Virus record (IMG/VR): IMGVR_UViG_3300021962_000134
Coordinates: 1 to 54,512 of that record
Length of the DNA: 54,512 nucleotides
Source of the DNA: a virus
Strand: one strand, 5' to 3'
Part shown: positions 45,405-52,990 of the stretch, in pieces
Layout of the letters: the number at the start of each line of letters is the position of its first letter
Numbering within the stretch: position 1 is the stretch's first letter
Translations under genes and position numbers: made by a program
The notes under the pieces: generated by a model
The model's input: the letters and a program-made list of their open reading frames with translations, nothing else
What the model was told of the DNA's origin: nothing
The model's database searches: none

Positions 45405-46811
45405 ATGGCTTCTGCTCGCAAAGCTAAAGGGAAAAAGTCAGTCGCTATAAGCGACATATCTGGCTTTAAAGTCCCATATAAAGAACTCAAGACTACTTGG
45501 GAAGGCTTTCGAGTAGAGCCAGAGGAGTACGATCCTAAGCAACCCCAGCTAACCCCACCCCGAAATGTTATCGACGCAACCGCGCTGTTTAAACCGCGTC
45601 CTGACACAGATCCTGAGAACGTAGAGATTTACATCGGTTATACATTTGACCCGTTCATCCCTATTCAACAAAGACCAGGAGTTGGAATTGGTTCTTTGGG
45701 TAGTGTTGGTTATGCTGGCAATGTCAGATATGACTACGTTTTCAATGTAACTGGGGTTTCGTCCACTGGCGCGATTGGAACTGTAACCATATCTGATAAC
45801 GAAGATGTGGTGACTACAGGGGTGGCTGCAACCGGAGCAGTTGAAGGGTTTGGAATTACCGGAAACGGTAATGTGATGATCATCGCAACTGGAATCTCTG
45901 GTGTTGGCGCAGTTGGAACAACAGGTGTTGAAACTCCGGGAACTGACGCAGTAGTCACAGGAGTGGCATCGACAGGTGCAATTGGAACAGTATCGCTTTA
46001 CATATCTCTGGATGCATATGTAACTGGAGTCTCTTCTACAGGAGCAACAGGAACTGAAGTTCTTGAAGGTGAGATTACCGAGACTGGGGTTGCCGGAACT
46101 GGTGCAATCGGAACTGAAGTCCCAGAGTCAGAGATAACTGAAACAGGCGTAGCTGCAACTGGAGCAATCGGAACTGAGAGCATTAGCGCAGGGGTGACAA
46201 TCACCGAGACTGGGGTTTCCGCGACTGGTGCAACTGGAACTGTATCACCAGAGTCTGAAATAACCGAGACTGGGGTTGCTGCAACTGGTGCGATAGGAAT
46301 TGAAATACCAGAATCAGAGATATCCGAGACTGGGGTAGCAACAACAGGTCAAGTTGAAGGCTTTGGAATATCAGGTAACGGTAACATCCAGATCATTGCA
46401 ACTGGTATCTCAGGAACTGGCGCAACTGGTAATGTCGGTCTTGAGGAAGCAACCGCTATCATTAATGAATCTAACAATACTGGCTGGGGCGAGCAGGATT
46501 GGGGCGAAGACATATGGGGCGGGCAACCTGAAATTGTTGCTTATGGCGATATTGGAACTGTTTCAATTGATGTGTTCATCGGTCCAAACGTAACAGGTGT
46601 TGCTGGAACTGGAAATGTAGGCTCAGAAACTCCAGAGGCTGAAATAACTGAAACAGGCGTGGCTGCAACAGGTAACATTGGAACAATCAGCAACGAAACT
46701 GAAGAGAGCATCACTGGACTAAGCTCAACCGGAGCAATAGGAACAGCACAAGCATACGTCGATCCGGGATGGGGCGAGGGTACTTGGAGTGAAGGAGATT
46801 GGGGTGAATAA
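45405..46811 (+). CDS. Virion protein with 14 TG-A-G type repeats
   Basis: 468 residues. After an N-terminal 110-residue part, the body is built from 14 copies of a short unit with the core T-G-V-x-x-T-G-A-x-G. Seven adjacent units have the 20-21-residue period with linker TESPESEITE or close variants. Two double units carrying FGIxGNGNxxIIATGISG show that a larger block was also duplicated. WGEGTWSEGDWGE ends it. Low charge and regular spacing suggest a beta-solenoid. It is next to the adaptor genes, so likely a tail or neck spike. Function inferred. Confidence 0.72.
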   Translation: MASARKAKGKKSVAISDISGFKVPYKELKTTWEGFRVEPEEYDPKQPQLTPPRNVIDATALFKPRPDTDPENVEIYIGYTFDPFIPIQQRPGVGIGSLGSVGYAGNVRYDYVFNVTGVSSTGAIGTVTISDNEDVVTTGVAATGAVEGFGITGNGNVMIIATGISGVGAVGTTGVETPGTDAVVTGVASTGAIGTVSLYISLDAYVTGVSSTGATGTEVLEGEITETGVAGTGAIGTEVPESEITETGVAATGAIGTESISAGVTITETGVSATGATGTVSPESEITETGVAATGAIGIEIPESEISETGVATTGQVEGFGISGNGNIQIIATGISGTGATGNVGLEEATAIINESNNTGWGEQDWGEDIWGGQPEIVAYGDIGTVSIDVFIGPNVTGVAGTGNVGSETPEAEITETGVAATGNIGTISNETEESITGLSSTGAIGTAQAYVDPGWGEGTWSEGDWGE

Positions 46812-47865: not shown

Positions 47866-49152
47866 ATGCCTAGTACATACGTTAATAATCTCCGATTGGA
47901 GGAGATGGCCACCGGAGAAAAGTCCGGGACTTGGGGGACCATAACCAACACCAATCTTGAGCTGATTGGCGAAGCACTGGGCTATGGTACTGAGGCTATG
48001 GCTTCAGATGCGGACACAACCATCACGATGCAGGATGCAACAGCTGATGGAGTCCGCGCTCTTTATCTTAAAATCACTTCTGGTGTAAGTCTGACAACAA
48101 CCAGAACGGTTACACTCGCCCCAAATACAGTAAGCAAGGTTTGGATTATTGAAAACGCCACCACTGGTAGCCAATCAATATCCATAGCTCAAGGCAGTGG
48201 CGGAACGGTAACAATCCCGAATGGGGCAGTTAAAGTTGTTTACTCTGACGGGGCTGGTGCTGGCGCAGCTGTGACCGATGCATTGGTTGATCTTGATCTT
48301 GCGTCTTTCAGCATTGCCGGAACTGCGGTAACTTCCACAGCAGCAGAACTTAACATCCTAGATGGCGTAACTGCTTCAACCGCAGAACTTAACTACAACG
48401 ACATCACCACGCTCGGAACTGTCGAGGCATCCAAGACTGTAACTGCTGACGCAAACGGAGATGTTAAATGGGGCGATGGTGACAAAGCTATATTTGGCAC
48501 TGATTCTGATCTAAGAATTGAGCATGATGGAAGTAACGCTTATATAGATAACGTCACAGGCGGAACTTTTATTAGAACTAATAACACAGAGAACTCAATA
48601 GTAGCTTTGGCAAATGATGGTGTGACTCTTTACTACGACAACGCAGCCAAACTCGCCACAGCAACAGGCGGAGTAACCGTTACTGGTACTGTGACTGCTA
48701 TAAATGCAGCAACGCAAGACGCAATGATTGTCTCTGGTCGAGCTGGTGGATCAAGCTCTTACACAGTTACGCTTCAGCCAGCCACTCTGTCAGCAAGTCG
48801 TTCAGTAACTTTCCCAGACGGTGGCGGTAACTACAGTGTTGGTTATCAAAACTTACCGGCTGTTGGAACAAAAACAGGTTCTTACACTTTAGCAGTTGCG
48901 GACATTGGAAAATATGTTCAAGTTGGATCTGGTGGCTCGATCACCATCCCAGACGCAACATTTGCTGAAGGCGATGCAATTTCTATATTTAATAACACCA
49001 CTGGTGACATAACAATCACTTGTTCAATCACAACTGCTTATATAGCAGGGACTGATTCAGATGTTGCCACAGCAACATTGGCTACTAGGGGTGTTGCTAC
49101 TATTTTATTTATCTCTTCCACCGTCTGTGTGATCGCAGGGAATGTGAGCTAA
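47866..49152 (+). CDS. Tail-fibre-like protein (428 aa)
   Basis: The start region, NNLRLEEMATGEKSGTWGTI followed by TNTNLELIGEAL, is the conserved N-terminal attachment module of marine podovirus fibres. It is followed by beta-rich Gly/Thr repeats, the twin short repeats TSTAAELNILDG and ASTAELNYNDI, and a C-terminal beta domain (ITIPDATFAEGDAISIFNNT). Probably a receptor-binding fibre or its tail-proximal part. 3 nt before the Gly-rich gene. Confidence 0.8.
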   Translation: MPSTYVNNLRLEEMATGEKSGTWGTITNTNLELIGEALGYGTEAMASDADTTITMQDATADGVRALYLKITSGVSLTTTRTVTLAPNTVSKVWIIENATTGSQSISIAQGSGGTVTIPNGAVKVVYSDGAGAGAAVTDALVDLDLASFSIAGTAVTSTAAELNILDGVTASTAELNYNDITTLGTVEASKTVTADANGDVKWGDGDKAIFGTDSDLRIEHDGSNAYIDNVTGGTFIRTNNTENSIVALANDGVTLYYDNAAKLATATGGVTVTGTVTAINAATQDAMIVSGRAGGSSSYTVTLQPATLSASRSVTFPDGGGNYSVGYQNLPAVGTKTGSYTLAVADIGKYVQVGSGGSITIPDATFAEGDAISIFNNTTGDITITCSITTAYIAGTDSDVATATLATRGVATILFISSTVCVIAGNVS

Positions 49153-49155
49153 TAA

Positions 49156-51576
49156 ATGACCGGAATACTCCAGATTGTCCTAAGTGCTTTCCAAAGCGGA
49201 ACCCCATTAGATATTGATTATCTAGTTATTGCCGGAGGTGGTGGTGGCGGCGGAGGCAATGTCAACAATGGTGGCGGAGGAGGAGCTGGTGGATACAGAA
49301 CCTCTGCTGGTACTTCTGGAGGCGGTGGATCTGCCGAAACTACTTTTAAAGCGTCAGTTGGACAAGCATACACAATTACTGTAGGAGCGGGTGGATCTGG
49401 TGGACAAGCCTCTGATGATGCTTCTGGAGTTGGTAATAATGGTTCAAACTCTGTTTTAGGATCAATTACTTCACTTGGTGGTGGAGGTGGAGGTGCTTTC
49501 CAAAACAACGGATCTAGCGGTGGTTCTGGTGGTGGAGGTGGTGGTTCTGCCTCTGCTGGAGCTGGAACTGCTAACCAAGGATACGCAGGAGGAAATGGAA
49601 TTGGTGGCGGAGGAGGAGCTGGTGCTGTCGGTGGTAATGGTAATCCAAATCCCGGAGGTACAGGTGTCTCTTCTTCAATAACTGGAAGTGCTGTCACTAG
49701 AGGTGGCGGTGGCGGTGGATCAGCTTTTGGTTCTGCTGGTGGATCAGGTGGCGGTGGAACGGGTGGTAACTATAATCCGGGATCTGATTCAAGTGCAGGC
49801 ACTGCCAATACAGGCGGTGGTGGCGGTGGTAATGGATACCATGTACCCGGAGTTGGAGGAACAGGCTCAACAGGCGGTTCTGGAGTTGTAATTCTAAAAG
49901 TTCCAACAACCCATAGCGCATTTTTCTCTAGTGGTGTTACTTATTCTGTTAGCACTTCAGTTTCCGGTTACAACATTTATACAGTAACCGCTACATCGAC
50001 CACATCGGAGACCGTTACATTCTCTGAGGGTGTTTCTGCTGACTATTTAGTTGTTGGATCTGGTGGTGGTGGAAAAAACTATCAGGGTGGAGGTGGTGGT
50101 GAGGTTAGTTCGTACAATAATCAAAGTTTTTTACTTGAAACAGCTTATACAGTTACAGTAGGTGCTGGTGGCGCGATAAATACTGACGGTAATGATTCTG
50201 TCTTTATAAACACAGCAAGTAAAGGATTTCGCGGAAGTCAGGTAAATAGTTTTGCTGTTGCTGGTACGAGCGGAAGTGGTAATGCTGGAGGTGTTGGAGC
50301 TAACCTTGGCAACCCGTTTTTAGGTGGTGGCGGTGGTGGTGATTCTGCCGTTGGTGGAAATTCTTCCGGATCAACATCGGGATCAGGCGGTGCAGGAACT
50401 GCTAATTCAATCACAGGATCAAGTGTTACAAGAGGTGGCGGTGGCGGAGCTGGTGTAGAAGGCAGTGGATCTCGCGGCACTGGTGGTGCAGGCGGTGGTG
50501 GTAATGGCTCTGGCCCTAATTCTAATAATGGTTCAGCAGGAAGCGCAAACACAGGCGGTGGTGGCGGTGGTGGAGATGGTGGGAACACAAATAGTGGATA
50601 TGCCGGAGGTTCTGGTGTTGTAATTATTAAAGTTCCAAATAACGTAGCAGCAGTTTTCTCTGGTGGTGTAACTTCATCACTTTCAACCGCTGTGTCGGGT
50701 TACAGAGTTTATTCTGTAACTGCAACAAGCACCACAAGCGAAACAGTTACTTTTGTTCAAGACTTCCCTGCTAATATCCTTGCTCAAGCAGGTGGTGGAG
50801 GTAGTGGTAATGGTACTGTTCCCGGATCTCCCGGAACAGGTGGTGGAGGTGGAGCTGGCGGCTTAGTCTATGCTGAGAATTATTATCTTGCTGTAGGAAC
50901 ATCTTATACTGTTACAGTAGGTGGCGGAGGAGGTGCTCAATCTAACGGTAGCAACTCTGTATTTGGTCCTGCAACTGCAAACGGTGGCGGTGCTGGTCAA
51001 CAAACTGGAACAGGATCAACAGGTGGTTGTGGTGGCGGAGCTGGAACAAATCCGTTTGGTACAGCATACCCTGCAGCACCAAGTAATCAATCGTCAACTC
51101 CAGCTACAGGCTTTACTGGGTATGGTAATGCTGGTGGATATCGTGTTATTTATGGCGGGTCTGGCGGTGGTGGAGGTACTGGTGCTGCTGGTCAAGGTGA
51201 AGGTTCTAGGGCAGGTGGAGTTGGTAGAGATTACTCTTCAGTATTTGGTTCAAGCGTTGGAGACTCTGGGTACTTTGGTGGTGGCGGTGGAGGAGCTGCT
51301 GGAGGACCGGGAGGTACTGGTGGTGGCGGTAATGGCATCACAAATGGACAAGGAATTTTTGGAACAGCTAATACCGGAGGAGGTGGTGGGGGTACTCACA
51401 ATTATTCGCCGGGATCGTCAGGTGGTTCTGGAGTAGTTTTGATTAAAGTACCAGACACAAGAACTGCTAACTTCTCAGGTGGTGTAACTTATTCTACTGA
51501 TACATCTATGACTGGATATAAGATATATGAGGTAACCGCAACTTCAACTACATCTGAAACAGTATATTTCACATAA
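49156..51576 (+). CDS. Triplicated glycine-rich tail-fibre / adhesin protein
   Basis: 806 residues. Three tandem modules (about 1-290, 291-535, 536-806). Each begins with an ADYLVVGSGGGG-like strand, continues with long polyglycine stretches, and ends with SGVVILKVP plus a short beta hairpin closing in TATSTTSETVTF. Gly-rich domains of this type can form polyglycine-II helix bundles and serve as receptor-binding tips in other phages. The protein is Cys-poor and Lys-poor. Follows the fibre gene with 3 nt between them, so the two probably form one fibre. Confidence 0.8.
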   Translation: MTGILQIVLSAFQSGTPLDIDYLVIAGGGGGGGGNVNNGGGGGAGGYRTSAGTSGGGGSAETTFKASVGQAYTITVGAGGSGGQASDDASGVGNNGSNSVLGSITSLGGGGGGAFQNNGSSGGSGGGGGGSASAGAGTANQGYAGGNGIGGGGGAGAVGGNGNPNPGGTGVSSSITGSAVTRGGGGGGSAFGSAGGSGGGGTGGNYNPGSDSSAGTANTGGGGGGNGYHVPGVGGTGSTGGSGVVILKVPTTHSAFFSSGVTYSVSTSVSGYNIYTVTATSTTSETVTFSEGVSADYLVVGSGGGGKNYQGGGGGEVSSYNNQSFLLETAYTVTVGAGGAINTDGNDSVFINTASKGFRGSQVNSFAVAGTSGSGNAGGVGANLGNPFLGGGGGGDSAVGGNSSGSTSGSGGAGTANSITGSSVTRGGGGGAGVEGSGSRGTGGAGGGGNGSGPNSNNGSAGSANTGGGGGGGDGGNTNSGYAGGSGVVIIKVPNNVAAVFSGGVTSSLSTAVSGYRVYSVTATSTTSETVTFVQDFPANILAQAGGGGSGNGTVPGSPGTGGGGGAGGLVYAENYYLAVGTSYTVTVGGGGGAQSNGSNSVFGPATANGGGAGQQTGTGSTGGCGGGAGTNPFGTAYPAAPSNQSSTPATGFTGYGNAGGYRVIYGGSGGGGGTGAAGQGEGSRAGGVGRDYSSVFGSSVGDSGYFGGGGGGAAGGPGGTGGGGNGITNGQGIFGTANTGGGGGGTHNYSPGSSGGSGVVLIKVPDTRTANFSGGVTYSTDTSMTGYKIYEVTATSTTSETVYFT

Positions 51577-51585
51577 GGACATAAC

Positions 51586-51981
51586 ATGGCGCATTTTGCA
51601 AAATTAGATGAAAACAATATCGTGGTCTATGTCACAGTTGGTCGTGATGAAGATAACGGCAAAGAAGATGAGCTGACTGCTCGAACTGGGGATGTGTATA
51701 AACAAACGTCTTATAATACAAAAGGCGGTGTTCATTACGACCCAGAAACAAATGAGCCAAGCGCAGATCAATCCAAAGCGTTCAGAAAAAATTATGCTGG
51801 ACTAGGTTATACCTACGATGCTGGCAGGGATGCTTTTATTCCACCAAAGCCGTTTGCTTCTTGGGTGCTTAATGAGACAACGTGCTTATGGGATGCGCCA
51901 ATTCCTCTTCCATCAGATAGCGATACTGTTGAATACATTTGGGACGAAGACACTACGTCTTGGGTAGTTTACAATCCATGA
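51586..51981 (+). CDS. Fibre-region protein (131 aa)
   Basis: MAHFAKLDENNIVVYVTVGR, a Tyr/Gly-rich middle (FRKNYAGLGYTYDAGRDAFI) and an end with DAPIPLPSDSDTVEYIWDED recur in cyanophage and other marine phage fibre regions. Function unknown; may be a fibre chaperone or tip. ATGA overlap with the next gene. Confidence 0.78.
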   Translation: MAHFAKLDENNIVVYVTVGRDEDNGKEDELTARTGDVYKQTSYNTKGGVHYDPETNEPSADQSKAFRKNYAGLGYTYDAGRDAFIPPKPFASWVLNETTCLWDAPIPLPSDSDTVEYIWDEDTTSWVVYNP

Positions 51982-52580
51982 TATTCGGACTTTTTGCTAC
52001 ACCAATTGGACGACATGATATTGAAAGAGAATTAACAGAAAAGGAAATTTCTTTTGTTAAAAATCTGGAAACAACAAAAAATGAAGGCAATGTTAATAGT
52101 GTAAATACTTACATTTTAAATGAGCCAGAGTTAAAAGATATAAATGAATTTTTAGAGACAAAGGTTAAAGAATATTTTTTAGAAACATATATACCTAAAG
52201 ATGATTTTGATTTAGCAATAACACAATCTTGGTCAAATGTTACTAAAAAAGATGAATATCACCACAAACATAGTCATGCAAATTCACTTATATCTGGAGT
52301 TTTTTATGTTCAAGCGGATGAAAACAAAGACAAAATACATTTTTTTAAAGAACAGATTAATACGTTAGATGTATATTCTGAAAATTTTAATGAGTGGAAT
52401 GCGCAAAGTTGGTGGTTTCCAGTTAAAACAGGACAACTTTTTTTGTTTCCCTCAAGATTACATCACATGGTAGAACGTTTAGATCATGATCAAGAAAGAA
52501 TTAGCATAGCGTTTAATACATTCCCATACGGTTTGTTAGGTAGGAAAGAAAGTTTAACTCAACTCAAAGTTAACAGGTGA
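51978..52580 (+). CDS. 2-oxoglutarate/Fe(II) oxygenase-like protein (200 aa)
   Basis: The start ATG at 51978 overlaps the previous stop. YHHKHSHANSLISGVFYV (HxH then the LSGV(F/Y)Y strand), GQLFLFPSRLHHMVERL (third His) and RISIAFNTFPYG (Arg) match the phage and cyanophage 2OG-Fe(II) oxygenase family placed next to fibre genes. Target unknown; a fibre or nucleotide is possible. The gene looks more AT-rich than its neighbours and uses AAA/ATT-type codons heavily, which suggests recent acquisition. Confidence 0.82.
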   Translation: MIFGLFATPIGRHDIERELTEKEISFVKNLETTKNEGNVNSVNTYILNEPELKDINEFLETKVKEYFLETYIPKDDFDLAITQSWSNVTKKDEYHHKHSHANSLISGVFYVQADENKDKIHFFKEQINTLDVYSENFNEWNAQSWWFPVKTGQLFLFPSRLHHMVERLDHDQERISIAFNTFPYGLLGRKESLTQLKVNR

Positions 52581-52583
52581 TTA

Positions 52584-52781
52584 ATGAAACTTATTAAAGT
52601 TACAAATGCAACAAAAGGAAGGATAGGGGAAGGTCTAATAATTAACACTGACCTTATTGTTTCTTTTTTTGAGCACACTCAAGAAGATGGTGAAAAGGTG
52701 ACTGTTGCTTTCGGGATGAATAATAATACTTGGGAAATTAAAGAAACCATAGACGAAATAAACGCTTTGATACAAGAATGA
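52584..52781 (+). CDS. Small protein (65 aa)
   Basis: MKLIKVTNATKGRIGEGLII, then TDLIVSFFEHTQEDGEKVTV: a beta-sheet-like pattern ending in an acidic helix. Shares the AT-rich style of the oxygenase. Start 3 nt after its stop; overlaps the next gene by 4 nt. Unknown function. Confidence 0.72.
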   Translation: MKLIKVTNATKGRIGEGLIINTDLIVSFFEHTQEDGEKVTVAFGMNNNTWEIKETIDEINALIQE

Positions 52782-52990
52782 ACGAACAGAACATCAGCCC
52801 TAAAGAATTTGGCGCATTACAAGCAGACGTTAAGAACCTTGCACGAGAGATCAGTTTGCTACGCAAAGATATGGCGCAAGTGAACGCGGTGATCAATCAA
52901 AGCAGAGGTGGGATTTATGTTGTGATGTTTGTCGCAGGATTAATCGGTTCTGCGATCACATTAGGTATTAAAAAGTTGCTGGGGCTGTGA
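52778..52990 (+). CDS. Small coiled-coil plus TM protein (70 aa), holin-like
   Basis: Residues 10-44 are a helix with heptads (FGALQADVKNLAREISLLRK), and 46-66 are a TM segment (IYVVMFVAGLIGSAITLGIK). This plan is seen in XhlA-like/holin-accessory proteins encoded near lysis genes. Overlaps the genes on both sides. Confidence 0.68.
   Translation: MNEQNISPKEFGALQADVKNLAREISLLRKDMAQVNAVINQSRGGIYVVMFVAGLIGSAITLGIKKLLGL

What the first reader, a model, noticed from the sequence alone, without database searches (positions are those of the whole stretch)
49156..51576. Threefold repeated glycine-rich adhesin
Three modules of about 240-290 residues each end in the same KVP...TATSTTSETVTF cap, with polyglycine blocks in between whose lengths differ. 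The gene pattern (GGTGGN repeats) makes slippage and module exchange easy, so it may be a fast-evolving host-range determinant.
Basis: partly seen in the sequence, partly recalled or inferred. Interest (0 to 1): 0.55.

Follow-up and report, generated by a model that had tools for sequence, protein, structure and literature searches.

The report
Three-headed glycine-rich phage adhesin
A virus of water bacteria carries a gene for a probable host-gripping tail protein built from three copies of the same glycine-rich head, made with its own folding helper and swapped between viruses as a block, which would let such viruses change what they can grip.

Summary
In detail: 49156-51576 encodes 806 aa (32% Gly) with three tandem Gly_rich_2 (PF21722) modules, each followed by a conserved 35-residue 'cap'. 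A high-confidence model of module 1 (pLDDT 94) matches the TNF-like plus glycine-rich head of the cyanophage Pam3 tail fibre (Z 13.5) and a Bxb1 tail-tip protein (Z 14.2), and weakly the LTK/ALK glycine-rich domain. The next gene (51586-51981) has only two structural neighbours, both fibre chaperones (Pam3 gp25, Mu Tfa). It follows a Gly-rich adhesin directly in 72 of 80 loci. Best reading: a multi-headed receptor-binding adhesin docked on the preceding fibre, with a dedicated chaperone. Relatives carry 1-5 modules. Slippage is not the main engine: there is no tandem-repeat DNA, only 1 of 83 modules is closest to a module of its own protein, and modules keep their position. Instead the tip-adhesin-chaperone block is replaced as a cassette: 89-98% identical relatives carry a one-module version or none. 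Unexpected: the cap lies C-terminal here but N-terminal in other members, which looks like natural circular permutation with tandem arrays as possible intermediates. This is a new variant of a known kind. Receptor, stoichiometry and chaperone activity are inferred.

The parts
49156..51576 (+). Tandem three-module glycine-rich adhesin, 806 aa
   Evidence: phrog_2295 E 4e-91
49162..49188 (+). N-terminal hydrophobic helix aa 3-11 (MTGILQIVLSA...), proposed docking peptide
   Evidence: model helix H3-11, pLDDT 65-80; type follows the upstream fibre-tip type, 15 of 15. Docking is inferred.
49207..49905 (+). Module 1 core (TNF-like sandwich with Gly-rich loops), aa 18-250
   Evidence: model pLDDT 94; Z 13.5 to Pam3 fibre, Z 14.2 to Bxb1 tail tip
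49918..50022 (+). Cap 1 (beta hairpin), aa 255-289
   Evidence: strands 255-257, 261-266, 272-280, 286-289; outside the sequential match to Pam3
50041..50637 (+). Module 2 core, aa 296-494
50650..50754 (+). Cap 2, aa 499-533
50770..51453 (+). Module 3 core, aa 539-766
51466..51573 (+). Cap 3, aa 771-806 (C-terminus)
51586..51981 (+). Probable dedicated fibre chaperone, 131 aa (phrog_7759); AAGGA at 51575-51579 overlaps the adhesin stop
   Evidence: model pLDDT 95; only structural neighbours Pam3 gp25 and Mu Tfa; follows a Gly-rich ORF directly in 72 of 80 loci
47866..49152 (+). Tail fibre, 428 aa; its C-terminal tip (about 48703-49149) is the proposed dock
   Evidence: weak hit to tail fibre phrog_8745; tip shared with unrelated phages
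51981..52580 (+). 2OG-Fe(II) oxygenase inside the exchanged block
   Evidence: PF13759, 79.5 bits; a different gene in L167 and two in L186
52584..52781 (+). 65-aa gene of unknown function travelling with the block
   Evidence: found in 32 loci that carry the chaperone; no Pfam, NCBIfam or PHROG match
48281..52789 (+). Block replaced in same-species relatives (left edge 48280 in L186/L247, 48696 in L167; right edge 52790 in all three)

Best explanation
It is a phage receptor-binding adhesin with three heads in one chain. Each head is a TNF-like beta sandwich from which glycine-rich loops project as a stiff stem, with variable loop ends that meet the host receptor. A short N-terminal helix docks the chain on the tip of the preceding tail-fibre protein. 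The next gene makes a chaperone that holds the Gly-rich heads while they fold and trimerise, and probably leaves before the virion is mature. Shown here: the three modules, the fold by model and fold match, the conserved gene pair, the tip/N-terminus association, module number 1-5, and block replacement. Inferred: receptor binding, docking, trimer (as in Pam3), chaperone release, and host-range change through replacement of the tip-adhesin-chaperone block by recombination in its conserved edges.
For: Fold: module 1 model pLDDT 94.1, pTM 0.91; VIA-align Z 14.2 (Bxb1 tail tip) and 13.5 (Pam3 fibre, rmsd 2.9 over 173 aa), then LTK/ALK at 5.5-4.4 and background below 4; Foldseek's first three rows are Bxb1 and Pam3. 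Pam3 gp24 itself hits PF21722 at 23.8 bits, just under the 24.3 cut-off. Partner: of 275 chains only Pam3 chaperone gp25 (Z 5.0) and Mu Tfa (Z 2.1) reach Z 2; the Pam3 paper shows a 3:3 complex with gp25 embracing the TNF-like/Gly-rich head and gp25 not detected in virions (PMC9608196, abstract and passages). Gene pair: 72 of 80 chaperone-query loci have the Gly-rich ORF directly upstream, 3 more within one gene or overlapping, 3 are at contig ends, 2 lack it. A different Gly-rich ORF in L169 is followed by a PF16778 tail assembly chaperone. Conserved stems with variable inserts: insertions relative to the window in 68-99% of rows at five places near aa 111-200, none in the main strands. Docking: tip type and adhesin N-terminus agree in 15/15 against 7/91, and 13/14 against 0/92. 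Cassette.
Against: No sequence-level link to Pam3: A1 against gp24 and A2 against gp25 give hhalign probabilities of 3% and 1%, and tblastn of the adhesin finds nothing among 50,697 phage records, in part because low-complexity masking hides it. gp25's helical trimerisation domain has no counterpart in the 131-aa partner. Z 5.0 over 55 residues is modest. Only module 1 was modelled, as a monomer. No receptor, host or virion proteomics is known. The regexes for tip and N-terminus were written after looking at the table, and related loci are not independent.
Confidence: 0.8

Rival explanations
1. Phase-variable or slippage-driven adhesin: GGN repeats expand and contract and modules recombine within the gene, giving rapid in-place host-range change.
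For: Module number 1-5; Gly runs of 2-9 before the last strand; one 33-nt in-frame indel starting in a Gly run between otherwise identical contigs.
Against: No tandem array in the gene; longest pure triplet tract 12 nt; nearest module in the same protein for 1 of 83, same position for 65 of 83 against 28.7 expected, maximum 46 in 2000 shuffles; same-species differences are whole-block replacements.
Confidence: 0.1
2. The 131-aa partner is not a chaperone but a permanent tip component (as the S16 adhesin gp38 or Mu Tfa stay on the virion), so the receptor binder is the pair.
For: Strict adjacency; its C-terminal half is beta and Trp-rich, unlike the trimerising helices of gp25; Mu Tfa has been found in mature phages (PMC9608196, passage).
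Against: Its only fold neighbours are fibre chaperones; it is far more conserved than the adhesin (downstream DNA 89-95% identical where adhesins are about 65%), unlike a receptor-contacting tip.
Confidence: 0.2
3. Single-chain pseudotrimer: the three modules of one chain fold as one three-fold head, replacing the homotrimer of one-module relatives.
For: Pam3 heads trimerise (PMC9608196, abstract); three modules is the commonest multi-module number (14 of 32 counted as multi-module).
Against: Relatives with 2 (10, after dropping L028), 4 (5) and 5 (2) modules exist; one docking helix per chain suggests three chains.
Confidence: 0.1

Closest known systems
Pam3 tail fibre gp24 with chaperone gp25 (PDB 7YPX, 7YFW; PMC9608196)
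   Same: TNF-like plus glycine-rich head (Z 13.5); dedicated chaperone gene next door whose N-terminal domain resembles our partner (Z 5.0)
   Different: One module, not three; long N-terminal helical shaft on the baseplate instead of a 17-residue N-terminus behind a separate fibre; edge strand N-terminal to the core and bare C-terminus, here a C-terminal cap; gp25 ends in a helical trimerisation domain
Bxb1 tail-tip glycine-rich ('brush') protein (PDB 9D93)
   Same: Best fold match (Z 14.2, 32% identity over 174 aa)
   Different: Mycobacterial siphovirus tail tip; the Bxb1 and mycobacteriophage papers are not held, so module number and chaperone were not checked; 'brush domain' is from a passage of PMC13243795
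Salmonella phage S16 / T2-type gp38 adhesin (PDB 6F45)
   Same: Separate adhesin protein capping a fibre tip; Gly-rich stem with variable loops (PMC6851490 and PMC12892980, passages)
   Different: Scaffold is a beta-helix with ten polyglycine-II helices; attaches by three Trp-bearing helices; one gp38 per fibre; no separate chaperone next door reported in the passages read
LTK/ALK TNF-like and glycine-rich (TG) domain
   Same: Same overall arrangement, Z 5.5-4.4; the Pam3 authors report the same likeness (PMC9608196, passage)
   Different: Animal receptor kinase ectodomain; no gene-level or functional link

Membership tests
Pfam PF21722 Gly_rich_2 | Score above gathering cut-off | tested here: met
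   148.6 bits against 24.3, three stretches
Pam3 gp24-type tail fibre | TNF-like plus Gly-rich head fold | tested here: met
   Z 13.5, rmsd 2.9, 173 aligned; prediction of module 1 only
Pam3 gp24-type tail fibre | N-terminal alpha-helical shaft for docking and trimerisation | tested here: not met
   Only about 17 residues precede the core, with one helix aa 3-11
Pam3 gp24-type tail fibre | Dedicated chaperone gene directly downstream | tested here: met
   72 of 80 loci plus fold match; chaperone activity not tested
Pam3 gp24-type tail fibre | Homotrimer, 3:3 with chaperone | not testable with these tools
   no complex prediction available
T2/S16 gp38 adhesin | Beta-helix plus polyglycine-II sandwich | tested here: inconclusive
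   not among the chains listed, which does not exclude it
T2/S16 gp38 adhesin | N-terminal attachment helices with conserved Trp | tested here: not met
   N-terminus MTGILQIVLSAFQSGTP has no Trp and one short helix
Tfa / tail fibre assembly chaperone (partner gene) | N-terminal beta domain as in gp25 and Mu Tfa | tested here: met
   Z 5.0 and 2.1, residues 1-87, the only rows at Z 2 or more of 275; modest scores
Tfa / tail fibre assembly chaperone (partner gene) | C-terminal helical trimerisation domain | tested here: not met
   model is beta with two short helices
Tfa / tail fibre assembly chaperone (partner gene) | Match to a curated chaperone family | tested here: not met
   no Pfam or NCBIfam match; phrog_7759 has no function assigned
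Diversity-generating retroelement target | Reverse transcriptase in the genome | tested here: inconclusive
   no PF00078 match in the record, but the record may be a fragment

The most novel reading that the evidence does not exclude
A family of multivalent phage adhesins in which one host-recognition head exists in two circularly permuted forms, with the edge 'cap' strand N-terminal (Pam3, phiPsal1) or C-terminal (this window), and in which tandem arrays of 1-5 heads, reading as both forms at once, are the intermediates by which one form became the other. The arrays give many receptor-binding heads per fibre end, and the unit 'fibre tip, docking helix, heads, chaperone' moves as a cassette among podo-, sipho- and myoviruses of aquatic bacteria.
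Probability: 0.45. Interest if true: 0.62.

Novelty: new variant of a known kind. Interest (0 to 1): 0.5.

Why it matters
The Gly-rich genes and the phrog_7759-type gene beside them are mostly 'hypothetical protein' in the ten annotated phage stretches opened, including isolates on Pelagibacter, Roseobacter-group and Synechococcus hosts. If the pair is adhesin plus chaperone, the receptor binders of many aquatic phages, cultured and uncultured, can be named from two neighbouring genes, and expressed in soluble form by co-expression. Tandem heads with natural length variants, and permuted single heads, also give a direct test of whether valency or head identity sets host range.

Tried and rejected
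Searches that led nowhere: tblastn of the adhesin in 50,697 phage records and the PF21722 search of the own record found nothing, although hmmscan finds the domain directly; I take this to be a filter effect. PDB sequence searches gave only one chance-level row (E 0.28) for the adhesin and none for the partner, and only E 0.14 to Pam3 for the module profile, below a monobody at 0.063. The chaperone profile search gave only unrelated enzymes and a fusion protein at 0.23 or worse. Reverse transcriptase (DGR): no match. tRNAs: none. Promoter-like and terminator-like patterns around the genes were not used.

Counts I discarded or corrected: one search printed loose profile hits (up to 12 per protein) that count Gly blocks as modules; with a looser rule also overcounted; one search is the one used, and in it L028 (288 aa, counted 2) is an overcount. 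Seven complete proteins scored 0 because they lack a C-terminal cap; these led to the permutation idea. The 109 complete adhesins come from loci fetched with the adhesin (biased), with the chaperone and from annotated phages. In one search the oxygenase was translated in the wrong frame; it was redone (6 loci). The strict regex caught 2 of 7 N-side caps; by eye all 7 printed sequences show one; the profile test puts 4 of 7 above all 147 controls (L157, L160, L161, L163), L158 in the right place but under the best control, L060 and L164 not. At the stricter E-value only 2 of 7 remain, against 0 of 102 C-cap proteins with a cap before the first core.

Single-chain pseudotrimer and slippage: see rivals.

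Papers: PMC9608196 outline, abstract and passages; PMC7289586, PMC6851490, PMC12892980, PMC13243795 passages only; PMC3157838, PMC10062164 and PMC12124961 not held. I found no paper on tandem or permuted Gly-rich heads in the searches; that covers open-licence PMC only.

Full report
WHAT IS THERE. The window is the whole of a 54,512-base IMG/VR virus record that encodes a DNA polymerase, helicase, primase, terminase, portal and major head protein and SU10-type adaptors. The finding's ORF is exact: 49156-51576, 806 aa, ATG to TAA. It is 32.4% glycine and carries three PF21722 Gly_rich_2 stretches at 148.6 bits. Modules are about 289, 244 and 273 aa. The three are alike as protein, not as DNA: in the 15 residues of the cap motif 12-13 are shared, but only 4-6 of these use the same codon. 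There is no tandem-repeat array in the gene, and the longest perfect triplet tract is 12 nt.

WHAT THE MODULE IS. Module 1 (aa 1-290) was modelled from an alignment of 124 modules: mean pLDDT 94.1, pTM 0.91. Against solved structures the top rows are a Bxb1 tail-tip chain (Z 14.2, 174 aligned), the Pam3 tail fibre (Z 13.5 and 13.1), then LTK/ALK TG domains (Z 5.5 to 4.4), with unrelated folds below 4; Foldseek agrees. The Pam3 paper describes this head as a TNF-like domain with a glycine-rich domain of six extended loops, a conserved stem and a variable tip proposed to bind the receptor, and notes the likeness to the animal receptor kinase (PMC9608196, abstract and passages). In our alignment, the main strands are conserved without insertions, while between aa 111 and 200 most rows have insertions relative to the window (68-99% of rows at five places). 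That is what a fixed stem with variable loops would give.

WHAT THE NEXT GENE IS. The 131-aa protein at 51586-51981 was modelled at pLDDT 95.3. Of 275 chains compared, only two reach Z 2: the Pam3 chaperone gp25 (Z 5.0, our residues 1-87 on its 3-57) and the Mu Tfa chaperone (Z 2.1). That the partner of a Pam3-like head has the Pam3 chaperone as its best fold neighbour is independent support, although the scores are modest and hhalign sees no sequence link. Its C-terminal half is beta-rich and not the trimerising helical bundle of gp25, so it works like a Tfa/gp25 chaperone but fails one defining feature of that family. In BFVD its closest relatives are uncharacterised proteins. A search seeded with this protein alone gave 80 loci: 72 have a Gly-rich ORF directly upstream; L096 and L138 have it one gene upstream and L102 overlapping by a few bases; L084, L121 and L145 are at contig ends; L128 and L131 have none. 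Relatives of the partner occur in 39 phage records, including Pelagibacter, Roseobacter, Methylophilales, Pontimonas and Synechococcus phages. In the regions opened, the Gly-rich neighbour is mostly annotated 'hypothetical protein'. In locus L169 another Gly-rich ORF is followed by a curated tail assembly chaperone, PF16778.

HOW IT IS PROBABLY MOUNTED. The adhesin has only about 17 residues before its first strand, with a predicted helix at aa 3-11. Across 106 complete non-redundant adhesins with an upstream ORF, the N-terminal type follows the C-terminal tip of the preceding gene: tip type A goes with 'M.GI.Q.LL' in 15 of 15, against 7 of 91 elsewhere; tip type B with 'MF.A..FF' in 13 of 14, against 0 of 92. 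The one exception, L088, reads MFGALDFLF. The patterns were written after seeing the table, and lineages are not independent. A telling pair is L098 and L115: the same upstream-gene N-terminus, different tips, and in each the adhesin N-terminus that goes with the tip. Module number is spread within both classes (A: 1-5, B: 1-4), so docking type and number of heads vary separately. One helix per chain would suit three chains on a trimeric tip; this is inference.

MODULE NUMBER AND HOW IT CHANGES. In 109 complete non-redundant relatives: no C-terminal cap 7; one module 70; two 11 (one of them an overcount, L028); three 14, the window included; four 5; five 2. Among 83 modules from multi-module proteins the nearest relative is in the same protein once; it is in the same position (first, middle, last) 65 times against a shuffled mean of 28.7 and maximum of 46, and this holds when close pairs are excluded (56-62 of 83). 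So the duplications are old, with little conversion between modules. In contrast, pairs of loci with 89-97% identical neighbours have adhesins only 65.5% identical (L001/L087 over 2450 nt, L005/L026 over 3231 nt), or different module numbers: L097 two and L099 one with downstream DNA 94.2% and upstream 88.5% identical; L085 one and L087 three with downstream DNA 94.4%. The clearest case is the window's own species. L186, L247 and L167 match it at 89-98% on both sides, but between 48280 (48696 in L167) and 52790 the block is replaced: L167 has another fibre end, a one-module adhesin and a 123-aa partner; L186 and L247, probably one allele, have another fibre end, no Gly-rich ORF and two other genes. 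Conversely, loci with near tips and chaperones (L080, L083, L001, L085, L087, L110, L112, L026; also L098) match the window only in tip, chaperone, the 65-aa gene at 52584 and, in L098, a short adhesin piece (these loci are at most 12.4 kb, and the adhesin is largely masked in that search). The unit that moves is therefore tip, adhesin, chaperone and sometimes the small gene. Small in-frame indels in Gly tracts exist too: L003 and L011 differ by one 33-nt indel and nothing else in the adhesin, though an assembly error is not excluded; the other near-identical pair, L100/L101, has 17 substitutions and no indel.

AN UNEXPECTED POINT: THE CAP MOVES. Seven relatives lack a C-terminal cap; six stop within nine residues of GSGIVIVRY-like ends, and L164 ends the same way by eye. 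Directly before their first glycine core they carry a segment like GGYKYHTFTSSGTFTV that resembles the cap of the others. A profile built only from 89 C-terminal caps finds it N-terminal of the core in L157, L160, L161 and L163 above every one of 147 shuffled or reversed controls, in L158 in place but below the best control, and not in L060 or L164. None of 102 C-cap proteins has a cap before the first core. Pam3 gp24 looks to be of the N-terminal kind: RTVVLTAASGNLPIPSDVSVLNWVRAVGGGG, with a bare C-terminus. In tandem proteins the cap-to-next-core spacing is 6 residues in 37 of 61 junctions, the same as in L157 (L163 has 17). This fits circular permutation of the head with tandem arrays as intermediates, the textbook duplication route (recalled). 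A non-sequential superposition is needed to prove that the cap occupies the same place.

VERDICT. This is a new variant of a known kind, the chaperone-assisted TNF-like/glycine-rich phage fibre head, here concatenated, permuted and mounted on a separate fibre.

Noticed in passing
window 45405-46811: A 468-aa repeat protein with 60-nt tandem repeats (ETGVAATGAIGTE units; TRF 46071-46336). Its length varies in relatives (210 aa in L198, 310 in L174, 521 in L172, 469-472 in same-species contigs). This, not the adhesin, is the gene where repeat-number change is plausible.
   Followed up: partly
L157 4093-5001 (MG835450.1, Pontimonas phage phiPsal1): The public annotation calls two ORFs (phiPsal1_022, _023) in a different frame over the 302-codon Gly-rich frame; the real adhesin gene appears to be missed.
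   Followed up: yes
window ends 54512 and 1: In L247 the window's end (54512) and start (3) lie about 200 nt apart in one contig with a 411-aa ORF across the join, so the record is probably a nearly complete circularly mapping genome cut open, lacking about 200 nt.
   Followed up: no
L014, L149, L154, L070, L169, L138, L021, L095, L146: Adhesin genes and adhesin-chaperone pairs also occur side by side: the ORF before the adhesin is another chaperone-like or another capped Gly-rich protein, so arrays exist at gene level as well as module level.
   Followed up: no
window 52584-52781: A 65-aa protein with no family match travels with the adhesin block in 32 loci; the exchanged block ends a few bases after it, at 52790.
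   Followed up: partly
window 51981-52580; L186 4964-5548; L167 6850-7404; L096 5397-5999; L138 5363-5992: 2OG-Fe(II) oxygenase genes recur inside or beside the exchanged tail block, different ones in different alleles, sometimes between adhesin and chaperone (the L167 and L138 genes were judged by their sequence endings only). A link to adhesin or receptor modification is untested.
   Followed up: no
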